Virus record (IMG/VR): IMGVR_UViG_3300047548_000085
Location: 1 to 56,858 of that record
Source: a virus
Length of the DNA: 56,858 nt
Reading direction: 5' to 3' (one strand)
This document shows positions 29,324 through 45,200 of the stretch, piece by piece. The first letter of the stretch is position 1. Each line of letters starts with the position of its first letter. The notes below the pieces were generated by a model, which was not told where the DNA came from, did not search any database, and saw only the letters and a program-made list of their open reading frames with translations. Both the position numbers and the translations under genes were made by a program.

Positions 29324-29875
29324 TTAGGAGACTACTAACCCGTGTAGGGAGTCTAAAACTGTATCGTAGTCTTCATTCCAGGAGTATTGGAGGAAAACTC
29401 TAGTTTTATCATCCTTTTTGGTAACGCTATGAAGTTCGTTAATATTAAGCAGATATGCTTCTCCAGCCTTAGCCGACAATGAACACTCTATGTTTAAATC
29501 CTCAAAGTCGTATACATGGTAATCTTCTCTAACTATCCCGTCTTTTGGAGTGTAAAAAATGGTTTCGTCTTCAGATGTGTCAATGTAGTAGTTTAAAGAT
29601 ACCTTAGATTCGCCTCGATCACGATGAACGTCTAGCCACCCCTGTTTTTCAATCTGCCAAATTTGAATGGTGGTTGGAGGAATCTTAAAATTGTAATTTT
29701 GAATGTTGGCATAAAACCCTTCCATATCAGCGATTTCGAAAAATCTAAGCAAGGTATCACCCTTTAGTGGATCAGTATCTACACCAAATGTAAAGATGTT
29801 ATCTCCCCTGTAGTCTAAAATTTTACTAGGGTTTTTAACGAAACATGGTTTTATCTTACTGAAGTATTTGTTCAA
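29324..29875 (-). CDS. 2OG-Fe(II) dioxygenase-like protein
   Basis: 183 aa from a TTG start (29875) with GGAG 7 nt upstream inside the preceding gene; overlap 20 nt. The facial-triad motif is clear: H84-R-D86 (GWLDVHRDRGESKVSLNYYI), distal H149 (NINELHSVTKKDD) and R159 exactly ten residues later, the usual 2-oxoglutarate-binding position. Both halves of the double-stranded beta helix are present (KVSLNYYID, AYLLNINELHS). The family typically hydroxylates or otherwise oxidises amino acids, peptides or small molecules. It is last in a block of four radical SAM genes, suggesting it oxidises the same peptide or protein. Substrate unknown. Confidence 0.7.
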   Translation of the reverse strand: MNKYFSKIKPCFVKNPSKILDYRGDNIFTFGVDTDPLKGDTLLRFFEIADMEGFYANIQNYNFKIPPTTIQIWQIEKQGWLDVHRDRGESKVSLNYYIDTSEDETIFYTPKDGIVREDYHVYDFEDLNIECSLSAKAGEAYLLNINELHSVTKKDDKTRVFLQYSWNEDYDTVLDSLHGLVVS

Positions 29876-31157
29876 TTCCAGACTCCATCAACTCAACCTG
29901 TTCGCCGAATAGTAAAGATAACGAGTTTTGTTGAATAGCCGAATACCAAATCTTTTCGACTCTGCAATTGTGTAAGAAAACTTCGTTAGGGAAGTCGATA
30001 GGACAGCTAGACTTACACAATCTTTTAACGGGGCAGTGATAGCAGTGAGTGTTCTTTCTTTCAAGAGCCATTCCTACAATCTTAACACCCTTCAAATTAT
30101 TTATGTGACCACCTGTAAATTTTTCATTTGTATGTGGACATAATCTTACGCTACCACGGATGTCTAACGATAGAATATCCGCTGAATCTGCACCACATGA
30201 GGAAGTCATCGTTATAGGAATCTGATGACGAGTCAATGCAGCGTATTTAAGAATACCTGTGTCGTTATCTACAATGTTAGACTTTAGGAAACGATCTCCA
30301 CCTTCTTTCTTTTGGCGAATGCATGCTTTAAGATAAGCGTCTACATTTTCCTTAAACTTGGGTAGGAGGTCACCAGTGATAACGTGCTCAGCTGAGTTTT
30401 CCTCTCCACGTTCATCGTACACTCTCGCTGGAATGAATGACAACCTAGCGTCTTTCAATCCTAGACGATCTGCAACTTCTTTAAAGTAATCGTTGATTTC
30501 AAACAGATCGTAGTTAGTGGCTGAAACAACAGAGTTGAAACTAAACTGAACTTTTGGAGCGAGTTCGGCTAGTTGTTTGATAGATGACACTACGCTTTCT
30601 TTATTGAAGATGTCTTCGCCACGAAGTCGTTCATGTCCTGGACCATCGTGTGAAATACCCATCATCACAGATGCCTGTAAAGTCTTAAAGAAGTCTACAT
30701 GCTTTTGACGTAGTGGTGAGCCATTAGTTGAGATGTAGAAGTGACGACCTGGAGCATCAAGAAACTTCATAATTGGAACCATATCATTCCAGTAAAGGAA
30801 TGGCTCGCCACCCCACAACTCAATGCGTTCTAGTTGTTCTAAATCTAAGTGAGTTTTAACTGACTCAATGAATGACTCTAACCAGAAGTTCTCTGGTCGT
30901 TCGTTTGGGTTACCGATGTCTTTTTGCATACAGTAACCACATGAGTAGTTACAAGCATGACCCAGTAGGATGCGTAAAGCGACTGGTTTATTGTTCTTAT
31001 GAGTTACACCGAAAAGACCCTTGTCTTCGAAATACTCCCAACCTTCTTTTGGTGGAAGTGATAGCATCTCACCTTGCTCGCTGTGGATGCTATTATCAGT
31101 GTTGTCGTAGTAGAAAATACGACCAGAATCTTTTAGTTTAAATTTTGAAAAACTCAT
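29856..31157 (-). CDS. radical SAM/SPASM protein D
   Basis: 433 aa. The radical SAM cluster-binding motif CxxxCxxC is C69, C73, C76 (GHACNYSCGYCMQ), followed by the GGEP motif at 116-119 (ELWGGEP). The C-terminal part is a SPASM/twitch type region with Cys in SCGADSADILSL, SVRLCPHTNE, THCYHCPVKRLCKSSCP and HNCRVEKIW, enough for auxiliary Fe-S clusters. An N-terminal ~60-aa segment precedes the barrel and could be a peptide-recognition part (not identified as an RRE). Such enzymes form thioethers, C-C or C-O links, or epimers in peptides. Its start overlaps the end of protein C (ATGA) and its end the oxygenase gene. Confidence 0.9.
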   Translation of the reverse strand: MSFSKFKLKDSGRIFYYDNTDNSIHSEQGEMLSLPPKEGWEYFEDKGLFGVTHKNNKPVALRILLGHACNYSCGYCMQKDIGNPNERPENFWLESFIESVKTHLDLEQLERIELWGGEPFLYWNDMVPIMKFLDAPGRHFYISTNGSPLRQKHVDFFKTLQASVMMGISHDGPGHERLRGEDIFNKESVVSSIKQLAELAPKVQFSFNSVVSATNYDLFEINDYFKEVADRLGLKDARLSFIPARVYDERGEENSAEHVITGDLLPKFKENVDAYLKACIRQKKEGGDRFLKSNIVDNDTGILKYAALTRHQIPITMTSSCGADSADILSLDIRGSVRLCPHTNEKFTGGHINNLKGVKIVGMALERKNTHCYHCPVKRLCKSSCPIDFPNEVFLHNCRVEKIWYSAIQQNSLSLLFGEQVELMESGIEQILQ

Positions 31158-32224
31158 AATTTCGTCACAAAACTTTTGATGGGTGTTCCGTCTAACTTAA
31201 CGAACCCATGTTTAGTTTTTGTCCATCCTCTTTGTTGTAATTTATCACAGTAGCGACTATAAGGAACCATCATCATTGAAGGTATAAAATTATAGTCATC
31301 GTTAAAGGTGTAGTTCAAAGTCTTTGTAAAGTATTCTTTAAACTTAGGATTGGTAGTCCTATCTTTCCACTTGTCATACAAAATTTGTTTACCACGAGCC
31401 AATGAAATTAAGAACTTTTCTGGCTCGAACTCTCTATTTAGAATGTAGTAGGGTTCGATGCTAGGATCGGATGCAACGTCATTGGAGAAGTAAAACCTAT
31501 CAAAGAATAGACAGATGGCTTCATCTCCATAGACCTGCATATTACCTTCGGTATCTACGTCAATCCATGTCACCTGCTGGTCAACCCAGTCTTCAGTTAG
31601 CAACTCTCGCTCACCAGCCAAGAAGTTGTAGTGAAACATCGTCTCAATGTTTTCTTTCTTAGCCCACTCATAATATTCACGCAAGGCATTGATGTTACCA
31701 CAGTCGATTAACTTCAACTGTAGGATAGGCGAAACCTCATGAATCTCTTGTAGCGATCTTTTTAACTTATCACCATTTACCTTTTCAACAAAGTAAGAAC
31801 TAAGGGAAATACTAGCGATCTCTTTGAAGTTGAGTTCCTTCGCCATACCTCTGTAACGGAAAATCTGATTGTCGGTCATTCCGTACTGAAAACGCTTTCC
31901 GTTACGCTTGAAGTAATCGTAGTGCTTTGGGTAGTTCAACTTTAAGAACATCATATCATCGTCTGTTCTTAGATACCCAAAGTAATCAAATACAGTTTCC
32001 CACTTTTCTTCAAGAGCATCATCAAAGTCGAAGTAATAATTACTAAGACCCTTCTTCATGTTCTTGAGGTTTTCTTGAATGTAGCAAACATGGCACCCAG
32101 CATCGCAAAAATAACGAGTGCTGATGCTAAAGTAAAGATCTCGCTTAACTGACTTGATACAATCCTGTAGGAGCCAGTGTTCGTCTAGATCCTTTGCTTC
32201 TTCAAAATGAGTCAAATAGTTCAT
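31154..32224 (-). CDS. divergent radical SAM protein C
   Basis: 356 aa. The CxxxCxxC motif is present at C40, C44, C47 (RYFCDAGCHVCYIQ), but no GGE motif follows and I see no SPASM cysteine group. The rest is rich in aromatic and acidic residues (DFDDALEEKWETVFDYFGYL, MMMVPYSRYCDKLQQRGWTK). A radical SAM core with a non-standard SAM-binding region is the best reading; it may partner one of its neighbours. It overlaps both flanking radical SAM genes by 4 nt (ATGA), which argues for stoichiometric production as part of a complex. Function unknown. Confidence 0.75.
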   Translation of the reverse strand: MNYLTHFEEAKDLDEHWLLQDCIKSVKRDLYFSISTRYFCDAGCHVCYIQENLKNMKKGLSNYYFDFDDALEEKWETVFDYFGYLRTDDDMMFLKLNYPKHYDYFKRNGKRFQYGMTDNQIFRYRGMAKELNFKEIASISLSSYFVEKVNGDKLKRSLQEIHEVSPILQLKLIDCGNINALREYYEWAKKENIETMFHYNFLAGERELLTEDWVDQQVTWIDVDTEGNMQVYGDEAICLFFDRFYFSNDVASDPSIEPYYILNREFEPEKFLISLARGKQILYDKWKDRTTNPKFKEYFTKTLNYTFNDDYNFIPSMMMVPYSRYCDKLQQRGWTKTKHGFVKLDGTPIKSFVTKL

Positions 32225-33348
32225 TCGTTAATCTTAAAGTCTTCCTTAACACCAACCCATTCAAGCACAGACTTCTTCTCGTTTAGTTTGGCGTTATGCA
32301 TAATGGCATAATCCATGTAAGTATAGAACTCTTTACAACTACCGTTTGGTTGTTCATCAAATAATTTATAAAGATATTTCAACCCACAACTTGGTCGCTT
32401 CTCGCAAGACGAACAAGAATCGTGGATACGTCCAGCGTCACCTTGATTGCGCCAGAGTTGTTTATTCTTCCAGTCGCCAATACGAGCGTTTTCTGTTTTG
32501 TATTCTAGGAAGTCAAACTCTGGATAAATGTATCCGTCTGGGGAGAGAATGAGTTTGTTGTGTTCACCGAAGTATGCTTTATCAACGTCAGTGTAGCAAC
32601 CATCAATAAACACAGTCAGTTTCTTAACATAAAGAATCTGAATGAATTGAAGGAATGCATCTAAGAATTGTGGTAGGTGGATTCTATCAAGGATAACATC
32701 AAACTTATGTTTTCCTCGTTTGTGTCGTAGGGGAATAATGTTGATAACACGGCAACCAGACTTGTAGCAAGTCGCCACAATTTCTTTGATGTTATCAAAT
32801 GAGAATGACTTTGGGTCATCAATCGGAAGGACGAACTGCCACTGCCAAGAATCGCAAGTTCGGTTTAAAATCTGAGCCATCTCCATGACATCAAACTCAC
32901 TACGATTCTGCCCTTGATACATGAAGTCGTAGCTGACTGTGGCATAAAGGACATCTTTGTACTTGTCAAAGAACCACTCGCATTCCTTAACCAACGAACC
33001 ATTGGTAGTCATAGTGACTTTCCATCCGTTACGTTTAGCCATAGGGTAAAGCCATTCCATAACCTGTTCCATTCGTTTAATGAACAGAAGAGGTTCGCCA
33101 CCATGGAATGACACTCGTTCGATTACGTTTGGTTGAGTTTCAACCCACTCCAAAAACTCCTTCATTTCTAAAAGAGTCTTTGTGTTTAGGTTTTGTCCAC
33201 CAAGCGATTCAATGTAACCTCTATCACAGTAAACACAGTCGAAGTTGCAAGTGTTACCAAGATAAAGAACTACAAGTTTAATTTTGGATAGATCGTTATT
33301 GACTATGCGAACTGGATTCAACAAGTCTTTCACTGAATGTTCCTTCAT
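32221..33348 (-). CDS. radical SAM/SPASM-like protein B
   Basis: 375 aa. C34, C38, C41 (NTCNFDCVYCDRG) form the CxxxCxxC site, with GGEP at 83-86 (VSFHGGEPLLF). C-terminal cysteines in DSCSSCEKRPSCGLKYLYKL and SCKEFYTYMDY fit a SPASM-type auxiliary cluster. The frame opens at ATG 33348, 53 nt inside protein A; a GTG five codons later (33333) has a better-placed AAGGAA and could be the real start. The central region is basic and hydrophobic without other signature. Context implies peptide modification with A, C and D. Confidence 0.88.
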   Translation of the reverse strand: MKEHSVKDLLNPVRIVNNDLSKIKLVVLYLGNTCNFDCVYCDRGYIESLGGQNLNTKTLLEMKEFLEWVETQPNVIERVSFHGGEPLLFIKRMEQVMEWLYPMAKRNGWKVTMTTNGSLVKECEWFFDKYKDVLYATVSYDFMYQGQNRSEFDVMEMAQILNRTCDSWQWQFVLPIDDPKSFSFDNIKEIVATCYKSGCRVINIIPLRHKRGKHKFDVILDRIHLPQFLDAFLQFIQILYVKKLTVFIDGCYTDVDKAYFGEHNKLILSPDGYIYPEFDFLEYKTENARIGDWKNKQLWRNQGDAGRIHDSCSSCEKRPSCGLKYLYKLFDEQPNGSCKEFYTYMDYAIMHNAKLNEKKSVLEWVGVKEDFKINE

Positions 33349-35032
33349 AAGTCTTGTAAACAGACTGTAAAATAATCATGTGGAGCAATCCAAGATAGAA
33401 CGCTCGTTGGTGTGGGGTCTTTGCTTCAATCTTTTTATTGGTTGGAGCCAGACTTCCTTTTTGTAGAACAAAGTAATAGAAGTCATCAATCTCAGTTAAT
33501 TCGTCAGTTATTGCAAGTTTTATTTGACTAGTGAAGTTTTCTGGGGTAAGATATACAGTGTTCCCGTTGATGAGTGATTTCCAAAGAGTTAACATCTGTC
33601 TGTAATCAATATCTTCTAATCCAGTATGAACCATCTCTAGTTTTGGATGGTAGTTGAAATAGAAGTAAAACAACAGATAACTAATACCCTTCGCAAACGA
33701 TCTCTGTTCTCCCTCTGTATCCAATGCAGAACAGATTGTCTCAAACTTCTTTCTAAACTGCTTCTTAGAAATATCTTCGTGTAAATCCAAATACAATTTT
33801 ACAATCTTCTGACACATATCGTCTGGTCGGAACATTCTCGTTCCAGTATCAAGATTACCAGCTGGACATTGGTAACATGCATTCTTTAGATCACAAGTTC
33901 TGCACTGTTCTTCTTCTTGGAACATCTTAGCGTATTCTGTTTGGAATGCTTTGTAACGATCAATGTAGATTGCATTGTCGTAGATGTTACCAAGAATCGC
34001 TACCTCACCAGCACCAGCCTTTTGGTTAGTGAAGAAGTAGCAACCAGAGAAGTCACCAGAAGCGTCAATGGCAATCATGTCAGAACCAATCATGCAGTTC
34101 TCTTCGCCTTTTTGACCAACACCTTCTGAGAAGTGAATCTGAAGATCGTTATACTTATCTAGAACGAATAGGATATCTTTATGGAGTTTGTCCCATTCAT
34201 CATCGCTCCAACGAATAAATCCCTTGCTTGAATCAAGAACTAGCGGATGAACCACCATACGACGAATACCACGTTGGTATAGATTATCAACAAAGTTTGT
34301 GAAATATGGAGCATTCTCTCTTGCAAGAGTACAACGGATGGTCACACGCTTCTGTTGTTTGGCATCTTCATTGATGTACTGAATCATCTCCATAAGTTTG
34401 TCAATTTTATCTTGACCAATCTCACGATGATCAACTTCTGCTCTATCTGTATCTAATGAGATGAGCATGTAAGTGAAGTCGTATGTGAACCACTCATCAA
34501 CTAAAGACTCAGTTAGAAGAAGACCATTGGTTACCATACCGATGACAGTATTAGTATCTCCACGTGAGTGTAGTTGAATTTCCTCTTTGTTTTTATGAAC
34601 AAAGTCTAGGATAATGTCTTTGTGGATTAGTGGTTCGCCACCGAAGAAGTTAAAGATTTTCTTCTGGCGTTTATTGGAGTTCATCAGAAAACGATATGCC
34701 TTTAGAAGACTCTCGCTAGTGAAACGTCCAAAATCTTTATTATGCTGTTCGTAACAATAGGTGCAAGAAAGGTTGCACGCATTTGTCAGAATGAGGTTCA
34801 TCTGTTTCAATTCTTCGAAAAGATATGGAACAGATTCCATCGGAACGATGGTTTCTTCTGGTTTAGGTACGACTGAAACTAACTTGTTAGTTTTAGAAAG
34901 ACCTTTTGGAGTGATAATTTCTTCACTCTTAAAACGCAATGAACCATCCTCAGATAGTTCAACTGTTGCAGAGTGTTGCGCTTTACGTTCTGCTAATTGT
35001 TCTTTAGTTAACCAAATAACTGGTTGTGACAT
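33296..35032 (-). CDS. radical SAM/SPASM protein A, with C-terminal extension
   Basis: 578 aa, the largest of the four. C86, C90, C93 (TNACNLSCTYCYEQ), GGEP at 131-134 (NFFGGEPLIHKD), and a full SPASM set: C313, C331, C377, C380, C386, C389, C407 (QCRTCDLKNACYQCPAGNLD...DDMCQKI). This is the architecture of anaerobic sulfatase-maturase-like and RiPP-maturing enzymes. About 85 residues precede the barrel and ~160 follow SPASM (SKKQFRKKFETICSALD, TYEGTFSERLVESSS); neither resembles a known domain. It starts 14 nt after the Cys-rich peptide gene with GAGG before the ATG, the usual position of the main maturase next to its precursor. Confidence 0.92.
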   Translation of the reverse strand: MSQPVIWLTKEQLAERKAQHSATVELSEDGSLRFKSEEIITPKGLSKTNKLVSVVPKPEETIVPMESVPYLFEELKQMNLILTNACNLSCTYCYEQHNKDFGRFTSESLLKAYRFLMNSNKRQKKIFNFFGGEPLIHKDIILDFVHKNKEEIQLHSRGDTNTVIGMVTNGLLLTESLVDEWFTYDFTYMLISLDTDRAEVDHREIGQDKIDKLMEMIQYINEDAKQQKRVTIRCTLARENAPYFTNFVDNLYQRGIRRMVVHPLVLDSSKGFIRWSDDEWDKLHKDILFVLDKYNDLQIHFSEGVGQKGEENCMIGSDMIAIDASGDFSGCYFFTNQKAGAGEVAILGNIYDNAIYIDRYKAFQTEYAKMFQEEEQCRTCDLKNACYQCPAGNLDTGTRMFRPDDMCQKIVKLYLDLHEDISKKQFRKKFETICSALDTEGEQRSFAKGISYLLFYFYFNYHPKLEMVHTGLEDIDYRQMLTLWKSLINGNTVYLTPENFTSQIKLAITDELTEIDDFYYFVLQKGSLAPTNKKIEAKTPHQRAFYLGLLHMIILQSVYKTYEGTFSERLVESSSHSQ

Positions 35033-35046
35033 AACGAATCCTCATT

Positions 35047-35250
35047 TTATAGTGTTCCACGCCCACAAGCGCAAGCGCATTGACATTCACAAACAGTTGT
35101 GTAGTCGTCGTAAAAGATATGATTATGTGATGCTAGTTGTTCTAAAACATCTAACATCTGGCGGTAAGTGTCCGCAGTAATATTGTCTCCGCTATTTTTA
35201 GCAGGAACATCTGAATTAACTGACGTAGTTGATGTGTTTTCTACACCCAT
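35047..35250 (-). CDS. Cys-rich putative precursor peptide (67 aa) with CxCxCxCxC tail
   Basis: 67 aa. Three parts are visible. Residues 1-24 are Ser/Thr/Asn-rich and probably disordered (MGVENTSTTSVNSDVPAKN). Then comes a helix plus HxH...DD segment (ITADTYRQMLDVLEQLASHN then HIFYDDYTT). The tail is VCECQCACACGRGTL, with five cysteines at every second residue. The middle part resembles the repeated ASrhNELRDAINQIRSHYHT-VDD motif of the protein at 36972-37358. The gene lies immediately upstream of four radical SAM genes. A strong AGGAG precedes the ATG, and the gaps are 8 nt and 14 nt. I infer it is a substrate of those enzymes (RiPP-like leader plus core) or a Cys-rich metal-binding tail-tip peptide. 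No GG-type leader cleavage site is seen. Confidence 0.8.
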   Translation of the reverse strand: MGVENTSTTSVNSDVPAKNSGDNITADTYRQMLDVLEQLASHNHIFYDDYTTVCECQCACACGRGTL

Positions 35251-35258
35251 GATTTCTC

Positions 35259-36167
35259 CTATTCGATAACATCAACGATGTACTCTCGGAAGAATCGGTT
35301 TTTACTTGCAGTAAAAGCCATGTCCATAGTAGTACCAGTATTCCAACGGATGCTGATGTATCCTCGTTGTTTATTTAGGGTATTGACTATTACCTTATTT
35401 CCGTCCATGGTGTAGTCAAAGTTCGTGTCAACCTTAATCTTGGCGTCTTTGAAGAACTCTGGGAAGTGGTGATTCACAAACCAAGTCTTAAATGGCTCTA
35501 GTGTAAACTCAGTTCCACGAACCATAATGCTATTTTCGCCAATGATTCTAGCGTTTTTGCTAACACGAGGTTTAAAGATGATTTCGTTTAAATTCTTAAG
35601 ATGATTCGCCACTGTGTATACATGGTTCTGCCCATACTTGGCTTCAATGTTTTCAACACACTGAACTGAATGTGGGTTTAGAACGATGTAGTAAAGCGGA
35701 AGGTCTTTGGCTTTGTAACAGAACATCCAAGGAATCATTTTTGGATTTTCAATTTCTTCACCAGATACCAAATCAACAATGGTGTTACCTAACCTGTGAT
35801 ACCAAGAAGTTTTAGAAATAACATCTTTCTGTTCAATTCCACCTGTTGGTAAAATAGCACCCATCATTGCAATGTTATCTGAAGTCTTGTCCATAATTTC
35901 TGCGATTGTGTCAAAATTTAATGGGACTTCAGTTTCTGGGTCGTGTACACTGAATGGACGTTTTAAGATCAAATGATCTTCAGTGTAAACGGCTCCAGTG
36001 ATGGCGAACCTATTATCAACTTTTTGAAAGAATGAAATGTAGTTGGTGTAATCTTTGGCGTTGTTGCTATACCCAAGTCCTGGATTGATACCAACATTAG
36101 CCATGTTTAAAGAATCATCCCATGGATCTGGTTGACCCATAGCAGTTTGTAGTAAGAATACTCTCAT
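35259..36167 (-). CDS. unknown 302-aa protein in the maturation block
   Basis: 302 aa, not recognised. The N-terminal part (MRVFLLQTAMGQPDPWDDSL, NMANVGINPGLGYSNNAKDY) and the central VVSGEEIEN...MIPWMFCYKAKDLPLY look beta/alpha mixed. There is no Walker, radical SAM, Cys-cluster or membrane signature. Its ATG overlaps the diiron gene's stop by 4 nt (ATGA) and its end lies 8 nt from the Cys-rich peptide, so it is made with both. It could be a peptide-binding partner, scaffold or modifying enzyme of a new kind. I cannot say more. Confidence 0.7.
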   Translation of the reverse strand: MRVFLLQTAMGQPDPWDDSLNMANVGINPGLGYSNNAKDYTNYISFFQKVDNRFAITGAVYTEDHLILKRPFSVHDPETEVPLNFDTIAEIMDKTSDNIAMMGAILPTGGIEQKDVISKTSWYHRLGNTIVDLVSGEEIENPKMIPWMFCYKAKDLPLYYIVLNPHSVQCVENIEAKYGQNHVYTVANHLKNLNEIIFKPRVSKNARIIGENSIMVRGTEFTLEPFKTWFVNHHFPEFFKDAKIKVDTNFDYTMDGNKVIVNTLNKQRGYISIRWNTGTTMDMAFTASKNRFFREYIVDVIE

Positions 36168-36952
36168 AGTGTTTTTCTATACGCCTTCAAATCATTAACA
36201 GTTTCAAATTCTTTACCAACCAAGTTTGATGCAATTCTTAAGATTGTTGAGTGTAACCTTCTTTGGTCTTTCTCATTAAACTCTAAGATGTCATTTAGGA
36301 AGTGGTCGAATAACTCTGGGTTTGGTAACCTAGAATGTACCGACTTCTTATCTATGTCTAGAGTTGATGACGCTTTAATAGAAATGAAGAAACGCTTAGA
36401 TAAGAACAGTTGAAAAATAGTAAGGATAGCCTTTTCATGTTCTTTCTTGTAATACTTTTTCATAAAAGTCTTAAACGCTGCAGCATGATTGGCTTCGTCA
36501 AGGACTAGATTTTTATAGATGTTCTTGATTAGTGGTTCTTTATGCCAATCAGCCATCTTACGATACCAACGAATAACTGACAATTCAGTACACATATGAA
36601 GAGCCATCATTTCAGCAACTGACATAGGAGAATCGCTGAATGGAATAGCGACTTCTTCAAACTCTCTTATTGTTGCTTCGTTATCGGGAATAAAACGGCT
36701 GCAATATTCTTTTAGGATATATGCGTGTTTATGCTCATCGTGCACCCACTTGATGATGAATGAACGTAAGTCTAAGTCTTCTGGGATTTCGTTAAGCATA
36801 GAGATTGCTGCTGGTAGAGATGCATACTCAATAACGGTATTCATCTTCACAACCTCTGCATTAGTTTGGGATAGTTCAGTTTCCTGATAACTATCCCAAT
36901 TTATTTTAGATGCGTCAAACGATCTATTTTGGTAAATTTTTTGCGAAAACAT
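36164..36952 (-). CDS. ferritin-like diiron oxygenase-type protein
   Basis: 262 aa. The four-helix carboxylate-bridged diiron site is readable: E42 (NTVIEYASLP), E73 and H76 in the ExxH of KWVHDEHKHAYIL, E123 (MCTELSVIRWYRK), and E153 and H156 in LVLDEANHAAAF. This two-ExxH arrangement is that of the ribonucleotide reductase R2/ferritin-like oxidase family, including AurF-like and desaturase-like enzymes that oxidise amines or carbon chains. No ferritin storage-type pattern is seen. It is the first gene of the coupled maturation block and overlaps the 302-aa gene by 4 nt. The start has a weak ribosome binding site. Substrate unknown; oxidation of the neighbouring peptide is inferred. Confidence 0.72.
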   Translation of the reverse strand: MFSQKIYQNRSFDASKINWDSYQETELSQTNAEVVKMNTVIEYASLPAAISMLNEIPEDLDLRSFIIKWVHDEHKHAYILKEYCSRFIPDNEATIREFEEVAIPFSDSPMSVAEMMALHMCTELSVIRWYRKMADWHKEPLIKNIYKNLVLDEANHAAAFKTFMKKYYKKEHEKAILTIFQLFLSKRFFISIKASSTLDIDKKSVHSRLPNPELFDHFLNDILEFNEKDQRRLHSTILRIASNLVGKEFETVNDLKAYRKTL

Positions 36953-36971
36953 AATATATCACAATAAACCT

Positions 36972-37358
36972 TTATGATGTTCTATCGTCAACTGTGTGGT
37001 AGTGACTTCTAATTTGATTGATCGCATCTCTCAATTCATTGTGGCGAGATGCAGAAATTGCTGTGTTGGCTGTTGTATTAGTTGGTGCAGAAGTTGCAGC
37101 GTCTGGACCAGAAGTATTTACGTCACGATAGTAGTTGTTTCTATCGCCATTATTACCATATGTAGCCAACTGATAGGCATCGTCATATGTATGATAATGC
37201 CCATTCATATTATTGATAAGAGTAGCAATGCTATTTAAGTCGCTGGCACGTACTGTGTTTCCTGCCTGAATCGCATTTCTAAGTGTTGCTATTTCAGTAG
37301 CGATAGAACCACTACCAGTAAAAACTAATGCCTTTGCGCCACGCTCTGCGGTTGCCAT
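36972..37358 (-). CDS. HxH-DD repeat virion-type protein
   Basis: 128 aa with two copies of one unit: ASDLNSIATLINNMNGHYHT-YDD (near residues 39-62) and ASRHNELRDAINQIRSHYHT-VDD (near 102-125, C-terminus). Each is a short helix followed by HYHTxDD. HxH motifs in T4 fibres (gp12, gp37) coordinate metal at trimer axes, so this may be a metal-binding trimeric tip. A related unit occurs in the Cys-rich peptide at 35047-35250. Between the repeats is a low-complexity region (YRDVNTSGPDAATSAPTNTT). AGGAG lies before the ATG. It sits between a small unknown gene and the maturation block. Virion location and metal binding are inferred. Confidence 0.65.
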   Translation of the reverse strand: MATAERGAKALVFTGSGSIATEIATLRNAIQAGNTVRASDLNSIATLINNMNGHYHTYDDAYQLATYGNNGDRNNYYRDVNTSGPDAATSAPTNTTANTAISASRHNELRDAINQIRSHYHTVDDRTS

Positions 37359-37359
37359 G

Positions 37360-37734
37360 TTACACTCCTAGTACTTCGTTTGCCCAATCCGTGTCCCAAG
37401 AATCGCCAACTGCAACATAAACCTTTTCAGAATCAATATTTTTACTAATAAGATATTTAACAGTATCTGTGACTAAAGAAACTGCTTCACCTTCTTCCAA
37501 TAACTCTTTAATGTGACTAACTGCTTCTGGGTTAAAATCAAGTTTTAAGAATGACTCATAGACTTTATCCCAATCTGGATTTATTACTGCAAAACCACCA
37601 GGAATATCTGCAACTGCACTTTCTTTAACTGCAATGATAGTTTGTTCAACTGGCTCGTCAGAGTATTCAAAATTGAATAGTCCACTACCCTTAACAAACT
37701 CATAAAAGAAATGAAGGTGTTGCTCTGGAGTCAT
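37360..37734 (-). CDS. 124-aa acidic protein of unknown function
   Basis: Starts at ATG 37734, overlapping the fibre stop as TAATG; an earlier in-frame start at 37749 lies within the fibre gene and is unlikely. The protein (TPEQHLHFFYEFVKGSGLFN, FAVINPDWDKVYESFLKLDF, LVTDTVKYLISKNIDSEKVY) is acidic and mixed alpha/beta, with no known motif or Cys cluster. Position between fibre genes suggests an assembly or virion function, but none can be named. Confidence 0.6.
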   Translation of the reverse strand: MTPEQHLHFFYEFVKGSGLFNFEYSDEPVEQTIIAVKESAVADIPGGFAVINPDWDKVYESFLKLDFNPEAVSHIKELLEEGEAVSLVTDTVKYLISKNIDSEKVYVAVGDSWDTDWANEVLGV

Positions 37735-38990
37735 TATAGAATTACACACTCAACTAATTTTACACCAGCATCTTGATTGGTCTCAAGAGCGATGGCAAAT
37801 GAATTTTGATGGTCACTGTAGAATGCGCAACCTTCTTGATTGCTGATTAGTGGTTGACCCTTACGAATTGGACCAACTACTTTAACTGGAACACGACCAC
37901 GTAGGGCAATCGCTTGTCCTGGAGCCTCGTCATTCATTAAGAATGCTGGGTTTGTGGAAACAACACCAAGGACTCGTTGACCAGATAACCATGAGGCAGT
38001 TGCCTCAGACTTTTCGTCGTATGAAACAACCAGAACAGTTCCTGGTTCATATTCTTTATCAGTTGTATATTTTTCTGCCAAGTCGGCGTAGCGAGCAGAA
38101 GTAGCAGTACCGTAAATAACACCGAAACGATTGTCTGATTGACCAATATCACCACTACCATTAGTACCAGTTTTGATTAAAGATGGGGCAGATAATGCAG
38201 ATGTAGTCAATGAACTTAGAGTCATTGAAGCATTAGTTGCAATAGAAATTTGTGGGTTTCCAGCAACACCGTCACCGTTAGTAATAGAAAGACCATTACC
38301 ACCAACAGTTATTGTGCGTTCTGTGACACCAGCGTTACCTGTACGAACATAGAAGCCTGTAGCAGAAGTGGCAGAAGCAATAGCAGTTAGTTCATTAGAG
38401 AACGGCTGAATATCAGTACCAATACCAAGACCTAAGTTAGTTCTAGCCTGAACAGCAGTTGATGCACCAGTACCACCATCAACAATCGCTAAGTCAGTAA
38501 TACCAGTGATAGAACCACCAGTAATAGAAACTGCAGTGGAGTTTTGAGTTGCAAGAGAACCTAAACCTAAGTTTGTTCGAGCATTACCAGCAGTTGTAGC
38601 ACCAGTACCACCGTTACCGATAGCAACAATACCAGACACGTTAGTAGCATTACCAGTAACAGTACCAGTAAGATTTCCAGTTACGTTACCTGTTAGGTTT
38701 CCAGTAAATGAAGCAGTAATAACACCAGCAGAAAAGTTACCATTAGTTCTAGTAACAACAGTATTACCAGTCGTGTCTGTGCTAGATGAGGTTAAACCAT
38801 CTAGTAAGTCTGCATCAAGACCAGATCCAAGACCATCTACAGTTAGTAGTTTAGTTAGCACATCTGCTGCAGTGTAAGCAGATGCGTCTAATTTTTGACC
38901 AACCTCAGCATTAAGATTACTGAAATTAGCGTCTGCCTCTGCGATTGTAAGAGGAGATCCTTTAATAGATCTTAAAACGATCGTTGCCAT
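37734..38990 (-). CDS. tail fibre protein with C-terminal YADLAEKY domain
   Basis: 418 aa. The N-terminal LRSIKGSPLTIAEADANFSN is a fibre attachment motif. The shaft contains SLATQNSTAV-type and TGASTAVQARTNLGLGIGTD units almost identical to the 238-aa fibre. The C-terminal domain (TATSARYADLAEKYTTDKEY, EPGTVLVVSYDEKSEATASW, RGRVPVKVVGPIRKGQPLIS) is the widespread phage module in which AxLAEKY is followed by a beta domain with LSGQRVLGVVSTNPAF. The gene overlaps both neighbours by TAATG. A trimeric fibre or baseplate-linked appendage is most likely. Confidence 0.72.
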   Translation of the reverse strand: MATIVLRSIKGSPLTIAEADANFSNLNAEVGQKLDASAYTAADVLTKLLTVDGLGSGLDADLLDGLTSSSTDTTGNTVVTRTNGNFSAGVITASFTGNLTGNVTGNLTGTVTGNATNVSGIVAIGNGGTGATTAGNARTNLGLGSLATQNSTAVSITGGSITGITDLAIVDGGTGASTAVQARTNLGLGIGTDIQPFSNELTAIASATSATGFYVRTGNAGVTERTITVGGNGLSITNGDGVAGNPQISIATNASMTLSSLTTSALSAPSLIKTGTNGSGDIGQSDNRFGVIYGTATSARYADLAEKYTTDKEYEPGTVLVVSYDEKSEATASWLSGQRVLGVVSTNPAFLMNDEAPGQAIALRGRVPVKVVGPIRKGQPLISNQEGCAFYSDHQNSFAIALETNQDAGVKLVECVIL

Positions 38991-39220
38991 TACTTGTCCT
39001 TATTAATCAATAGCATTAGCATTTGTTTGATTTCTGAAACATCCGATTCAATCTTATCAATCTTCTCGGCGTTTTGTTGTACTTGTTCTTTCAATTCTAT
39101 CTGCGCTTGTTGTTTCTTTAAAAATGCTTCTTTGGCAGACCTGTTAGTATTTATGATTGCACCACTAGTCATGTCTCGGACAAGACCAGTGGCGTTTTCA
39201 ATCTTAACAAATCTTTCCAT
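38990..39220 (-). CDS. small coiled-coil virion-associated protein
   Basis: 76 aa from ATG 39220, which overlaps the stop of the 2159-aa gene as TAATG; an earlier frame opening at 39232 is not needed. It begins MERFVKIENATGLVRDMTSG then AIINTNRSAKEAFLKKQQAQ, and continues as a Gln/Lys/Glu-rich coiled coil (LKEQVQQNAEKIDKIESDVS). Proteins with this ERFVKIEN...GLVRD...GAIINT start are small conserved members of marine T4-like phages, usually near tail genes. It probably forms a helical spacer or plug. Function unknown. Confidence 0.6.
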   Translation of the reverse strand: MERFVKIENATGLVRDMTSGAIINTNRSAKEAFLKKQQAQIELKEQVQQNAEKIDKIESDVSEIKQMLMLLINKDK

Positions 39221-42200
39221 TATGCGCAACAAACAACACGTAGATCTTTGATTCGTGGTACTTGAGAACTGTTGATTGACTTCATAACTAACTTAACTTG
39301 AATACCATCGAACGCTGCTGCAGTAGCGGAGAACGCTGCATCGAAGAACTGATTAGTTTCGTTCTGAGCAGTTGTGATAGTTGAGTCTGGTGAAGCGATC
39401 TGTACGTATGGTAGAGCCTCAAAGTCACCAGTGTAACCAACTGGGTTAGTTCTATACCAAACTTCAATCTCAGACTCAGCTGGTAGGTTAGCAGAGAAGT
39501 TTACACGAACGTAAGTGTTTACGTCTGCGAAGTTGATTCTCTTAGTAACATACTTACTCATAGTACCAGAACCATCTGGAGTATTTTCTTCAACAAAACG
39601 CTCACGTTGTACTAAAGTAGCATTTCCAGAGATCGCTGAAGGAGCAGAGTCGAAAGTGATTGAAGAACCATCTGCTGCAACTGCAGTAATCAGACGAGTG
39701 CTTGAACCAGAAGAAGCACCAGAAATAGTTAGGTACTTACCAACCTTAGCCAACTTAAATGCTGCATTCTGAGTAGAAGTAGTGATAGTGTTCCCAGAGA
39801 TTGTAACACCAGTCGCTGCAGAAAGGATAGTGTTGTAATCTAGGTTAGCCACGTTAGTATTCAACTCAGTTGGACTATTTACCTTGTTATTGATAACGAT
39901 CATGCTAGTGCGATGTGTATCAATAATTGGAGATAGAGCATCGTTAGTTGAAGACATTAGAACATTGAACGCTAGAGATTTATCGCTACCAATGTTTTGG
40001 TCTTCGTTGTACTGTGATGCAACCATTCTTGGAGAACCGAAGTAGTTAGTTTCGTTCGCAAGAACACCAGTAAATAGTGAGTCTTGTGTATAAGCAGACT
40101 GGGTTAGTGAGTGTACTGACTTACCACTAATAGTCTTCATACCAAATTCAATTGGTGTTTCAGAGAATGTCTGCATTGTAACAGAAGGTTGAACAGCATC
40201 ATATTGGTAATGACGAGTTGCACGAACTGTTGAACCACCAGAGTAACCAGATGCAGAAGCATTGGTAGTGGTATTGATGATGTAACTATCAATGTCTAGA
40301 CCATCTGCTTGAACAGTATGAGTAGTGTAGATTTCGTTTGCTGGGATACCGTTTACTGGTGCTTTATACTTGAATGAAGAACCAGCAGTAACTGCTCCAG
40401 TTGCATTTGCAGCAAGAGTTAGAGAAGTGTTAGATGCAATAGATGCAACCTTACCTAAGAAGTTTCCATTTGCATCGTACAAGCAGTAACCAGCAGCGAG
40501 TTGAGTAGTAAACGCTGTACCGCTACCAGTAACAGTAGTTGAAGTAGCAGAAGCAGTAATAGTACCAGTGCCGTTATCGTAAGTTGTGCTGATAGTGACG
40601 AAAGTTCCGCCAGCAGAAACTGGTGGGAATCCGTGGTCTTTCTGCCACACACGAATCTTATTAACACCTGCTCTAGTTTCGAATGGATCGATATCTAGAG
40701 TTTGTAGAGGTACAATGTCGTTAACATATTCAACATTACCAACAACAGTGGTGTCGAACTGGGCACGATAGATTGTGAACTTCAAGTCTTGTGTTTGGTC
40801 AGCAGTCCAAGTAGAAGCATTCTGTGACTTGAATAGAGAACCAAGATATGGTTGCTCAGAGATAGTACGAGAAGTTCCTGGCATTGTGTCGCCAACTTGT
40901 GAAACCCAAACACGGTAGCCATTAGAGTCAGACGCTAAAACTACAGCATATTCAGTATTCTCTTGAACATAAACTGGGCTTGGGAATACGAATGAAGTTG
41001 CTACGTCATACTTATTAGCAGTAGTTCCATCTTCTAGTGGAACTACGTTTGATGACAAGTTAACTTGTTCTGGGTTTAGAGTAACACGTGAGAATGGTAG
41101 AACACGCTTACCTGGATATCCGTTAACGCACTCACGAATTTCTAGTGTGACTGGAATTTTGTCGTCTTTAGTAGCAAAGAAGACATCAATCTTAGATAGG
41201 AAGCAACCACCCTTCTGCTCAATCAAGAATGTTTGAGCAAGTGGATCCCACCAGCCAGTATCAGAAACAATACGTTCTGCGGTGTTAACAATAACACGGT
41301 TATCTACTAATTGTTCTTCAACGAGTTCAGCGTTACGAACAGCGTGGACAGTTTGTTGACGAGTTTCTAGGATACCTTCTGCACGATAGTTAGCACGAGC
41401 ACGTGAAGTGAAGATGCCATCAGCAGTGTTTACGTCAACAAGTTTAAGTTCACGAGTACCAGAACGGAAACGTAGTGAATCATTGTTTGGAATAGCAAAC
41501 AATAGCTGGATCTCACCAGAGAAATTGGTGATTAGATCGCTACCCTTAGCCTTAGTTGTAACTGCAACAACAGAGCCAGTAGCAGCTGAAACTGAACCAG
41601 TGATAGTTTCGTTATTAGAGAATGTACCGATAATGTTTACAACAGATAGGTAATATTTGTTAGTGTCTGGGTTATATTCTTTACCAACCACAACAGCAGT
41701 TGCTCCAGAAGTACCACCAGTAACAACGTCACCACGATTTAGACACATCTGTGAGTCACCGTTGATACGACGAGAAACACCAGACGCTAGACCACCTACG
41801 TTAGTGTCTACGTCAAATGTACCTCCACCTGGAGTGTATTCAATCTTAGATGCTGGAGTACAGTAAGTGCTGATATCAACACCATCAAAGAATGGGTAGA
41901 ACTTAGTGTTTGGCTTTAGTTTCTTAATTTGAACTAGAACATTTCTAGATCTCATGTAAGGAATTGCAGCAGTTGAAAGAACACGGTCGCCGACAACTTG
42001 ACGATCAATTCTTGAAACTAGAGAAGTCTTGATACCAGTTCTAGTTTGACCAACTTGAGTAGCAGTAGTCTCAACAGTAATCTGACGAGCATTACCCCAA
42101 GAAGTGATACCGAACTTTTGTTGAACTTCTGCTTGTGATAGACGAACATCACCTTGACCAGATGCCCATGCAGAACCGAATGTGTATTTTACACTACCAC

Positions 42201-45200
42201 GGCTGATTGGTGTACCAGTCCAAGAAGTTTGCCATGCGTTCCAAACTGTACCAAGAACACCAGCACGTTCTGCAATATTCTTAACAGCGTTGTAATTACC
42301 TTCAACGTCAATCACTAGATCTGGACGACGATCTACTTCAAACCAGTCGTCTGAAGATGGGTTTAGTTTAACATCACCAAGGAAAGTGAATACAGCGAAC
42401 GGGTTGATGTTTTCTAAACGAGATGCGAAGTCTTGTTTAATTAGAGGGATGTGATCAAGAACTGGAAGAGTGATAACATCACCATAAGTCTGGTAATTTG
42501 CAGCAGAACGCTCAGTGTTGCTAGTAGCCTTCTCTAGAAGGTTTACGTTATGCATCGCAAAGAATGGACGTAGTTCACCATTCTCCATATCGATAGAACA
42601 TAGGTAATCTCCAGATGAAGTATTACCAACACCTTGTGATGTGAAGTTATCTACAATGAAACCATTCTTGAAACGATCAAGACCATTAGAGTCAACAATG
42701 TTTAGAGTTTCTGTTTGTTGTTCTAGTAATGATAGTGATGTGTAGTATTCAAGATTATCAATACGCTTTTCAAGTTTACCAATGTCACGCATTGTGTAAC
42801 GCTTGTTGTCGTATTTTTGTACGCTTACACTACCAGAAGTAGTAGTTGGTGTGAATGGTTGTAGAGTTAGACCGTATAGAACTAGACCAAGAGATGGGTC
42901 TAATGGCTCACCTGGATTAACAGAAGGAACACCATCAATCGCAAAGAAGTTACCTGCGAAGTCTACAGCGATCTTAGCCTTACGACCAAGGTAGTAAGAA
43001 TAGTCAGCAACAGGATCTACACCACGCTTAGGAATTAGTGTGAATGATGAACCAGTGCCAGTGAAGTTAGCACCAGTGTCGTCAATACGTGGACGGAAGT
43101 CGATGTAGTCAGTTAGTGGAACACCATTCCAGTATGGAATTGCTTTGTATTCTACGTTTGCTGGATATGAATCAACAGTGAAATAGTCACCAGTTGAGTG
43201 AGTGAAGTAATCAAATGTTACTTGAATTGGTGCTTCTGGTGGTGCGTATGAACTCTTTAGAACCAAACGAGTTTGGTCGTAGAATGAATCACGTTGACCA
43301 CCATCAAAGTCGTAACGATCAGTGATGTCGATAGAGTAAGTAGCACCTGGAGATGAGAAATTACCAGACTTCATCTTAACTGAAATTAGTCGATATCCGT
43401 CTGCCTTACCAAGTAGTAGAGTCTTCGCCTGAGCAGTTGCTTGTGTTGTGAATGTTGCAGTTGCAGCTGAAACAAGAGTCTTAGACTTTCTTGTTAAAGT
43501 TGAACCAGACTTATTAACCTGTGCGATAACTACAACAGAACGACCATTCAATGCAGTCGATACGTTGATGGTTGCACCAGAACCAGTTGCTGAGATGGAT
43601 GTCCATGCAACTGAAGCACCTGAAGTTAAATCAATAACTAGGTATTGGTCTGTGTCTGCACCATTAGCCAGAGTACCAGAAGAAGTTGAGATACTAATCT
43701 GACCAGAAGAAACGCTTCCAGAGAAAGTTTCGTAAACGCTGTAGATGGTGTCATTAGTACCATCAGCTGCAGTTACGCTCTTAATAGCATTTTTCTTAAG
43801 TGGGAAAACTAAAGGACTATTTTCTGTTTCATATACTTTAGTTCTAACTAGACTAAACGCTGAGTTAGTTACAGTGCCAGAAAACGCTGCGTTAATAGTA
43901 GCAGTAGTTTGAGTTGTTTTAGCATCGATTCTGCGAGTTTCAACAACACCAGAAGTATTTGTTACGCTGATGTAATCACCAACTGATAGTTGAGTTAGGA
44001 AAGAAGTTCCGTTACCAGTTAGAGTAGTAGTTGATGCAGAAACAGAACCAGTCAATTGAGTTAGTTCTGGAGAAATATCAGCAGTAAAGTCTGCGCCAGA
44101 TGCATTATTGTAGTAGAATGATTTGACGTCATCGTTGAAGTCATAACCATTACCCATCTGTACATCGAATAGACCTAGTTTGTAAACTGCGGTTGCAGTG
44201 CCGTATGTTCCGTTATCTAATTCTAAGAAACGAACACGAGCAGTACCAACCACAGTACCACCTGCTGGTGTAGCACCATTGGTGTCAACGTGGCGGTTGT
44301 ATAGTGTGACAGCAGCAAAACGATTTGAAGAGATTAGTGGTGGTGGACCATACAGATTAGTAACCTTGACATAGTTACCAACAGTCGCTGGAATAGTCTC
44401 AGCGTTTACTTGTACGCTAGTTCTAGCCTTTTCTACAGCAACATACTCAGTAGAAACTTTTTCAATTTCGTAACCTTGTACGTATGCTTTTCCTGGTTCC
44501 ATACCAACAGCAAGTTTTGATTCCATTGCTTGGTTGGTTGCTAAGTCTGCATTATCAGCTGGTTTGTTAACACCACGATTAAAATATGGAGTTGTGGTAT
44601 ATTCCCACTGAATACCAGTGTTACCTGGACCATCGTAAACTGCGCCAGCAGTATGAGTTGGTGGAACTGAAGATGAAGAAGTGCTTGAGTTGCGAGCGAC
44701 GTAATAGTTACCACCGTTAGTAACTACGTCACCTGCTAGGTAAACTCTACCTGACACCCAGTCTCCACGATTGTTATCACGGAACTCACGGATATCAATT
44801 TCAAAATTACGAACAGTGTAGTTACCAGATTCATCGTAAGTACGACGAGCAAACTCTCTTGCTAGAACAGAGTATTCAGTTTGGTTGATAGCCTTCTTAA
44901 CTTGACCATTGCCAGTACGAATAAGTTCAATAAACTCAGCATCATCTGTTGAGTCAATTCCGATTGCTACGAAATTTGTAGTAATTGTGTAACGATGCGC
45001 ACCTGGAGCAGCATAGTTAAAACTGTTCTGTGCATTATCAAATAATGATTCATCTTCTTGAGCGGTAGTTTCAGTCTCAGAAACTCTTAGACCAATACGG
45101 TAAGAAGGTGTGTTGCTGAATTTATCTAGAACGATAGTTTCAGATGGAACATAAACGAAGCATCCCTTAATAAAGTAGATACCTTGTTTGATAGATGCAA

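What the first reader, a model, noticed from the sequence alone, without database searches (positions are those of the whole stretch)
29324..36952. RiPP-like peptide-maturation cassette inside a phage tail-fibre operon
Eight tightly coupled minus-strand genes encode, in order: a ferritin-like diiron protein, an unknown 302-aa protein, a 67-aa peptide ending in CxCxCxCxC, four different radical SAM proteins (three with GGEP and SPASM-type cysteines), and a 2OG-Fe(II) oxygenase-like protein. Junctions are 4-nt overlaps (36164/36167, 32221/32224, 31154/31157), 53-nt and 20-nt overlaps, and gaps of 8 and 14 nt around the peptide. The set is flanked on both sides by fibre and virion genes and sits between gp8 and gp13. 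Peptide plus SPASM enzymes is the hallmark of ribosomally made, modified peptides. Finding it in a lytic phage's adsorption region suggests the phage modifies a virion tip component rather than secreting an antibiotic. I know of no described equivalent.
Basis: partly seen in the sequence, partly recalled or inferred. Interest (0 to 1): 0.96.

Follow-up and report, generated by a model that had tools for sequence, protein, structure and literature searches.

The report
Enzyme cassette for phage tail-tip protein
A family of phages appears to carry a fixed set of radical enzymes next to a small tail-tip-like protein that ends in alternating cysteines, suggesting that these viruses chemically tailor the tip of the fibre they use to attach to bacteria, which I could not find described anywhere.

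Summary
In detail: eight tightly coupled minus-strand genes at 29324-36952, including a 67-aa protein ending CECQCACACGRGTL and four (three certain, one probable) radical SAM (rSAM) proteins, lie inside the baseplate/tail-fibre operon of a T4-like phage. It is not a one-off. Profile searches found 60 phage-type contigs with the same set. The order rS578-rS375-rS356-rS433 never changes, and the Cys-tailed protein is present in all 57 contigs complete enough to judge (3 to 6 Cys, always C-x-C, always ending ..RG..). A Cys-blind search for the protein found no copy without the enzymes (42/42). One member is the cultured Ralstonia jumbo phage RP12. The protein's N-part is not a RiPP leader: it matches the HxH domain of the neighbouring virion-type protein, and in Ewingella two such domains are on one chain. 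Independently, C-terminal (Cys-Asn)n tails sit on real tail fibres in other phages with an rSAM in the same locus (67/88 versus 3/32 controls, P=3e-11), including cultured Achromobacter phage JWF. Best reading: a phage tail-tip maturation system, RiPP-like in logic but with a virion part as substrate. The chemistry and virion location are inferred, not shown. I found no published description.

The parts
36164..36952 (-). Ferritin/rubrerythrin-like diiron protein (262 aa), accessory
   Evidence: Pfam Rubrerythrin above cut-off; two ExxH motifs; present in 5 of 60 related loci only, others carry DUF3050 instead or as well
35259..36167 (-). 302-aa beta-rich protein of unknown function (u302), core member of the set
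   Evidence: No Pfam/PHROG/PDB hit; homologues in 54 of 60 loci; AF2 pLDDT 81; best fold match Ralstonia phage RP12 protein A0A1L7N0Q3, TM 0.77, E 6e-20
35047..35250 (-). 67-aa putative tail-tip protein and proposed substrate: N-terminal HxH..DDY domain plus C-terminal CECQCACACGRGTL tail
   Evidence: Homologues in all 57 loci where the region is complete; tail pattern conserved; N-part matches u128 HxH domain
33296..35032 (-). rSAM/SPASM protein (578 aa), closest to thioether-forming maturases
   Evidence: Pfam Radical_SAM + SPASM; PapB 2e-35 and SCIFF maturase 4e-24, both below NCBI cut-offs; PDB best CteB 5WGG 7e-18
32221..33348 (-). rSAM protein (375 aa), GGEP, twitch-like C-terminal cysteines
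   Evidence: Pfam Radical_SAM; conserved Cys
31154..32224 (-). Probable divergent rSAM protein (356 aa)
   Evidence: CxxxCxxC in 49/50 homologues; phrog_36229; weak TIM-barrel fold match; no profile match to rS433 beyond the Cys motif
29856..31157 (-). rSAM protein (433 aa), GGEP and 7 SPASM-type Cys
   Evidence: Pfam Radical_SAM; conserved Cys; distant homologue in Achromobacter phages JWF and 2-1
29324..29875 (-). 183-aa protein with HxD...H...R motif, possible 2OG-Fe(II) oxygenase, accessory
   Evidence: Motif in sequence only; no Pfam hit. It occupies the place where relatives carry DUF3050
36972..37358 (-). 128-aa virion-type protein with two HxH..D domains (u128), conserved partner gene
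   Evidence: Homologues in 57 of 60 loci; HxH invariant; phrog_31780
37734..38990 (-). Tail fibre protein, flanking gene; homologue elsewhere ends in a (CN)4C tail
   Evidence: 44% identity over 264 aa to L327 fibre whose C-terminus is FCNCNCNCNC
39220..45699 (-). T4-like VrlC/baseplate-wedge-type protein, flanking
   Evidence: 43% identity to the Synechococcus phage BUCT-ZZ01 homologue

Best explanation
The cassette is a dedicated maturation system for a phage tail-tip (fibre or spike apex) protein. The 67-aa protein folds as a small HxH domain of the kind found in its neighbour u128 and in phage fibres, probably docks on the tail structure, and exposes a (Cys-x)n tail at the distal end. The rSAM/SPASM enzymes act on that tail (steps inferred), most likely forming thioether or related C-S/C-C crosslinks between the cysteines and the alternating N/D/Q/E/A residues. 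The diiron (ferritin-like or DUF3050) and 2OG-type enzymes add optional oxidations. The result would be a rigid, hypermodified or metal-binding tip used in adsorption or envelope penetration. Shown: gene set, order, co-occurrence, shared domain, and Cys tails on real tail fibres associated with rSAM. Inferred: substrate identity, chemistry, virion location, role.
For: Invariant order rS578-rS375-rS356-rS433 and a Cys-tailed partner in 57/57 evaluable loci; the 60 contigs form 36 groups at 90% rS578 identity. A Cys-independent scan for the peptide (pattern H[TNS]Hx[FY][YTF]DDY) returned 42 relatives, all in rSAM-cassette contigs (contigs compared). The link survives rearrangement: enzymes inverted (L063/L088), peptide downstream (L167), rS375-rS578 fused (L171). 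The peptide N-part matches the HxH domain of u128, hhalign P 5e-8. The Ewingella peptide carries two HxH motifs plus the tail on one 122-aa chain. In L171 an intein sits exactly inside the CxC tail (TIGR01445 above cut-off); inteins favour essential, conserved sites (established knowledge). Independent cases: Achromobacter siphophage JWF tail fibre with CNCDCNCNCSC tail plus Hint domain, and an rSAM gene two positions on; 88 viral loci with C-terminal CNCxCNC tails, 67 with an rSAM versus 3/32 controls, P 2.8e-11, 52 of them same strand and downstream within 2 kb; 5 of 10 tested carriers hit tail-fibre PHROGs, one 44% identical to the window's own fibre. T4 gp37 HxH sites bind iron and are essential for tip function (PMC6957217, PMC11705849). 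rS578 is closest to the thioether maturases CteB and PapB.
Against: No modification, expression or virion location has been observed. All NCBIfam matches to named maturases are below their cut-offs. No RRE was detected. PapB needs Cys-X3-Asp strictly (PMC8172795), which the CxC tail does not match, so the exact bond is open. rS356 is not proven to be an rSAM. 21 of 88 Cys-tailed loci lack a detected rSAM (some are short contigs). The Bdellovibrio MAG copy sits among chromosomal and pilin-like genes, so the product is not strictly phage-bound.
Confidence: 0.7

Rival explanations
1. A true RiPP: the peptide is cleaved after modification and the Cys-rich core is released as a small molecule (antibiotic, superinfection or host-control agent, or metallophore).
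For: Short precursor next to several rSAM/SPASM enzymes is the usual RiPP layout (PMC8172795); closest maturases are CteB/PapB.
Against: The N-part is a conserved structural-type HxH domain rather than a leader, with a second HxH motif on the same chain in Ewingella. No transporter, protease or immunity gene was seen around it in the window (and the scanned flanks). Location and linked genes are fibre/baseplate genes in T4-like and jumbo phages. Similar tails occur on full-length tail fibres.
Confidence: 0.12
2. The Cys tail is an unmodified metal or Fe-S binding tip, and the rSAM enzymes act on another substrate such as a glycan or another fibre.
For: CxC repeats bind metals in general; HxH fibres bind iron (PMC11705849). 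In Campylobacter phage CP220, clustered rSAM genes sit with sugar-nucleotide transferases and no Cys-repeat tail was found.
Against: Strict co-occurrence of tail and enzymes in both directions and the rSAM enrichment around unrelated Cys-tailed fibres. No glycan gene in the window cassette.
Confidence: 0.15
3. Auxiliary metabolic cassette (cofactor or nucleotide metabolism) that happens to lie in the tail region.
For: Published annotations call parts of it MoaA-like, Fe-S oxidoreductase, MgoB, or DNA repair/host metabolism (PMC5468394, PMC8541153).
Against: All three firm rSAMs match peptide maturases at least as well as MoaA. The set moves as a unit with the Cys-tailed protein and u128 between T4-like and phiKZ-like phages.
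Confidence: 0.03

Closest known systems
Radical SAM/SPASM RiPP systems forming thioethers: CteA/CteB (SCIFF) and PapA/PapB (ranthipeptides)
   Same: SPASM rSAM enzyme next to a short Cys-rich protein; rS578 is most similar to CteB (PDB 5WGG) and PapB
   Different: Four different rSAMs in fixed order; scores below family cut-offs; alternating C-x-C tail rather than C-x3-D or spaced Cys; N-part is a phage structural-type domain; no protease or exporter seen
Phage tail fibres and spikes with HxH iron sites (T4 gp37, Alteromonas phage R22Y gp12)
   Same: HxH motifs in tail-fibre proteins; fibre/baseplate gene neighbourhood
   Different: Known ones carry no reported Cys-repeat tail or maturase genes
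Tail fibre with Hint domain plus anSME-like rSAM in Achromobacter phage JWF (annotated, function not recognised)
   Same: C-N-C-D-C-N-C-N-C tail on a fibre with an rSAM gene two positions on
   Different: One rSAM instead of four; tail followed by a Hint domain; fibre is one long protein
rSAM arrays in jumbo phages DT01, S13 and 332-Vera (noted as unusual in PMC12390700)
   Same: Several rSAMs near virion genes; DT01 and S13 also have 2OG oxygenases and a ~180-aa protein ending (CHxS)n..RGRR
   Different: Different Cys/His repeat; no homology shown to the window set; cupin genes, and in S13 DHFR-like genes, included

Membership tests
RiPP biosynthetic cluster | Ribosomal precursor encoded beside modifying enzymes | tested here: met
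   67-aa ORF conserved with four rSAM genes
RiPP biosynthetic cluster | N-terminal leader, cleaved from a core | tested here: not met
   N-part is homologous to a structural-type HxH domain; no protease gene recognised in the cassette or the scanned flanks. Cleavage itself was not tested
RiPP biosynthetic cluster | Export or immunity genes usually present | tested here: not met
   None recognised in the cassette or the flanking window genes scanned; the relatives' flanks were not scanned systematically
RiPP biosynthetic cluster | Post-translationally modified product | not testable with these tools
   Needs mass spectrometry
PapB/CteB-type thioether maturase | rSAM core plus 7-Cys SPASM domain | tested here: met
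   rS578 and rS433
PapB/CteB-type thioether maturase | Score above the curated family cut-off | tested here: not met
   PapB 122.5 vs 340 bits; SCIFF 85.2 vs 425
PapB/CteB-type thioether maturase | RRE domain binding the precursor | tested here: inconclusive
   No PqqD/RRE-like Pfam or NCBIfam hit in rS578, but these are weak tests and no structure was predicted for it
Phage virion tip/fibre component | Encoded among tail structural genes | tested here: met
   Window and relatives
Phage virion tip/fibre component | Homology to virion domains | tested here: inconclusive
   Matches the u128 HxH domain, but u128 itself is not proven virion-borne
Phage virion tip/fibre component | Detected in purified virions | not tested
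   RP31 virion MS table (PMC5468394 suppl. S3) could not be opened

The most novel reading that the evidence does not exclude
Phages of several unrelated lineages carry dedicated radical-enzyme pathways that build chemically crosslinked or metal-loaded (Cys-x)n tips on their tail fibres: a virion-borne, post-translationally made tip material that acts in attachment or penetration (possibly mimicking a metallophore), and which a Bdellovibrio appears to have acquired.
Probability: 0.5. Interest if true: 0.96.

Novelty: categorically new. Interest (0 to 1): 0.92.

Why it matters
Enzymatic radical chemistry on virus particles is, as far as I could find, undescribed. If true, it explains the puzzling rSAM arrays in jumbo phages, adds a new layer to phage-host recognition, and gives a large unexplored set of peptide-modifying enzymes. 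It is testable now because cultured phages (RP12/RP31, JWF, DT01, S13) carry this or an analogous arrangement.

Tried and rejected
Cultured-phage search with the peptide gave only chance terminase hits at E 0.1-0.2. u302 and u128 found nothing in cultured phages. PDB sequence searches with the peptide, u302 and u128 gave nothing usable. u302 has no confident solved-structure match; Ig-like hits are local only. T4 late-promoter TATAAATA: none in the window, uninformative. Peptide profile in GTDB bacterial genomes: none. Search of 141 genomes around the Bdellovibrio copy: only that one. The RP12, RP31, RSL2 and 332-Vera records are not held in the phage collection. CP220 rSAM cluster checked and judged different. 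Literature searches found no paper linking rSAM maturation to phage fibres; only open-access papers could be searched.
Full report
WHAT IS THERE. The window is a 56.9-kb IMG/VR virus record of a T4-like phage. The large wedge-type protein at 39220-45699 is 43% identical to that of Synechococcus phage BUCT-ZZ01, and PHROGs name baseplate wedge, hub-lysozyme, gp13-, gp14- and gp15-like proteins, terminase and tail sheath on both sides. Pfam supports rSAM in three proteins, SPASM in the 578-aa one and rubrerythrin in the 262-aa one. The 578-aa protein is nearest to PapB and SCIFF maturases, below their cut-offs, and in the PDB to CteB, 5WGG. The 356-aa protein has CxxxCxxC in 49 of 50 homologues, no profile match to rS433 beyond that motif and a weakly barrel-like predicted fold; I call it a probable rSAM. 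The 375-aa protein has twitch-like rather than full SPASM cysteines.

IT IS A CONSERVED MODULE. The peptide alone found 15 viral contigs, a DNA pattern more, and an rS578 profile 62 loci. Profile annotation of 60 contigs (window and two genome-assembly contigs included) found the peptide in 57, u128 in 57, u302 in 54, rS375 in 54, rS356 in 50, rS433 in 50, DUF3050 in 31 and the ferritin in 5. The three without the peptide are contig-edge cases: L139 starts at rS578, and L159 and L168 end inside the cassette. The order rS578-rS375-rS356-rS433 never varies where the genes are separate and complete; in L171 rS375 and rS578 are one fused protein in the reverse order. The 60 fall in 36 groups at 90% rS578 identity and 23 at 70%. 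A scan with a Cys-free pattern from the peptide's HxH..DDY part returned 42 relatives, all in contigs with the enzymes (one search compared). The link survives rearrangement: enzymes inverted and convergent (L063, L088), peptide after rS433 (L167), and the 758-aa fusion (L171).

THE SMALL PROTEIN. The tail varies from three to six cysteines, nearly always alternating with A, N, D, Q or E, and ends x-RG-x with a short mostly hydrophobic end. The part before it, H-x-H-x-F-Y-D-D-Y, matches the C-terminal HxH..D domain of the adjacent u128 protein (hhalign P 5e-8). In the Ewingella americana contig the peptide ORF is 122 aa with two HxH motifs and a CNCNCNCNCNC tail. So the 'leader' is a structural-type domain. 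In L171 an intein interrupts the tail exactly at a cysteine (TIGR01445 above cut-off; CNCA|C...N|CNCTCC). Inteins usually sit in essential, conserved sites (general knowledge), which suggests the tail is the functional site.

CULTURED MEMBER. L165 is 279,845 bp, the exact length of Ralstonia jumbo phage RP12 (PMC5468394). Its neighbours (an SbcC-like ATPase and a RuvC-like nuclease, read from the ORFs) agree with the published order, and the top fold match of u302 is an RP12 protein of the same 295-aa length. The authors listed the genes separately as radical SAM (ORF76), Fe-S oxidoreductase (ORF77), MoaA (ORF79) and MgoB (ORF80). RP31, its sister, had 32 virion proteins identified by LC-MS; that table could not be opened here. 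DUF3050 (PF11251) is the protein annotated MgoB there, by gene order.

THE WIDER CLASS. Achromobacter phages JWF and 2-1 have a distant rS433 homologue. Two genes upstream in JWF is a tail fibre whose C-terminal part reads NCNCDCNCNCSC, directly followed by a Hint domain. This prompted a scan of viral contigs for CNC[DN]CNCxC. In 88 the motif is a C-terminal tail of an ORF, and 67 of these have an rSAM of this kind in the same locus, against 3 of 32 where the motif is not a tail (Fisher P 2.8e-11; 52 of the 67 on the same strand within about 2 kb downstream). The loci are not all independent, and a few are members of the window's own family, so the P value is optimistic. Of ten carriers tested, five hit tail-fibre PHROGs; one is 44% identical over 264 aa to the window's own fibre at 37734-38990. 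Jumbo phages DT01 (Pseudomonas) and S13 (Burkholderia) show an analogous layout with another repeat..CHTSCHTSCHSARGRR and ..CHSSCHTSCHGSRGRR, beside several annotated rSAMs (six in DT01, four in S13) and two 2OG oxygenases. A 2025 paper called eight rSAMs in the structural cluster of Aeromonas phage 332-Vera highly unusual (PMC12390700) without explanation.

HOW IT MOST LIKELY WORKS. Shown: gene set, order, co-occurrence, shared HxH domain, Cys tails on real fibres. Inferred: rS578 and rS433 (SPASM) crosslink or otherwise modify the tail, with rS375 and rS356 adding further changes and diiron/2OG enzymes optional oxidations; the mature protein caps a fibre or spike near u128; HxH pairs bind iron as in T4 gp37, where these histidines are essential (PMC6957217). 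The exact bond is open: PapB demands Cys-X3-Asp (PMC8172795), which does not fit C-x-C. A metal-loaded tip that exploits metal-uptake receptors, in the spirit of the Trojan Horse idea (PMC11705849), is a speculative sub-case.

LIMITS. No expression, modification or location data. Many contigs are fragments and some are near-duplicates. The Bdellovibrio MAG copy lies beside pilin-like and metabolic genes and was the only one in 141 genomes of its order, so it may be acquisition or a binning error. Novelty rests on open-access papers only.

Noticed in passing
L171:9793-10416 (-): Intein inserted inside the CxC tail of the peptide gene, splicing predicted to restore ..CQCNCACNCTCCTRG..
   Followed up: yes
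L204 and L218 (Bdellovibrio MAG contig NCGL01000045): Complete cassette among chromosomal and pilin-like genes with a second rS356-like gene; possible capture by a predatory bacterium or a binning error
   Followed up: partly
L225:34666-35226 and L228:12046-12582: Second type of repeat tail (CHxS)n..RGRR on ~180-aa proteins inside rSAM/2OG/cupin arrays of Burkholderia phage S13 and Pseudomonas phage DT01
   Followed up: partly
L230-L349: Dozens of phage proteins, many tail fibres, end in (Asn-Cys)n tails; 21 of 88 such loci had no rSAM detected nearby
   Followed up: partly
L229 (Campylobacter phage CP220, record 70-85 kb): Several rSAM genes next to sugar-nucleotide transferases and an amidinotransferase, a different use of rSAM in a T4-like phage
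   Followed up: no
window 24428-25069: GIY-YIG-like homing endonuclease-type ORF (read from sequence only) within the fibre operon
   Followed up: no
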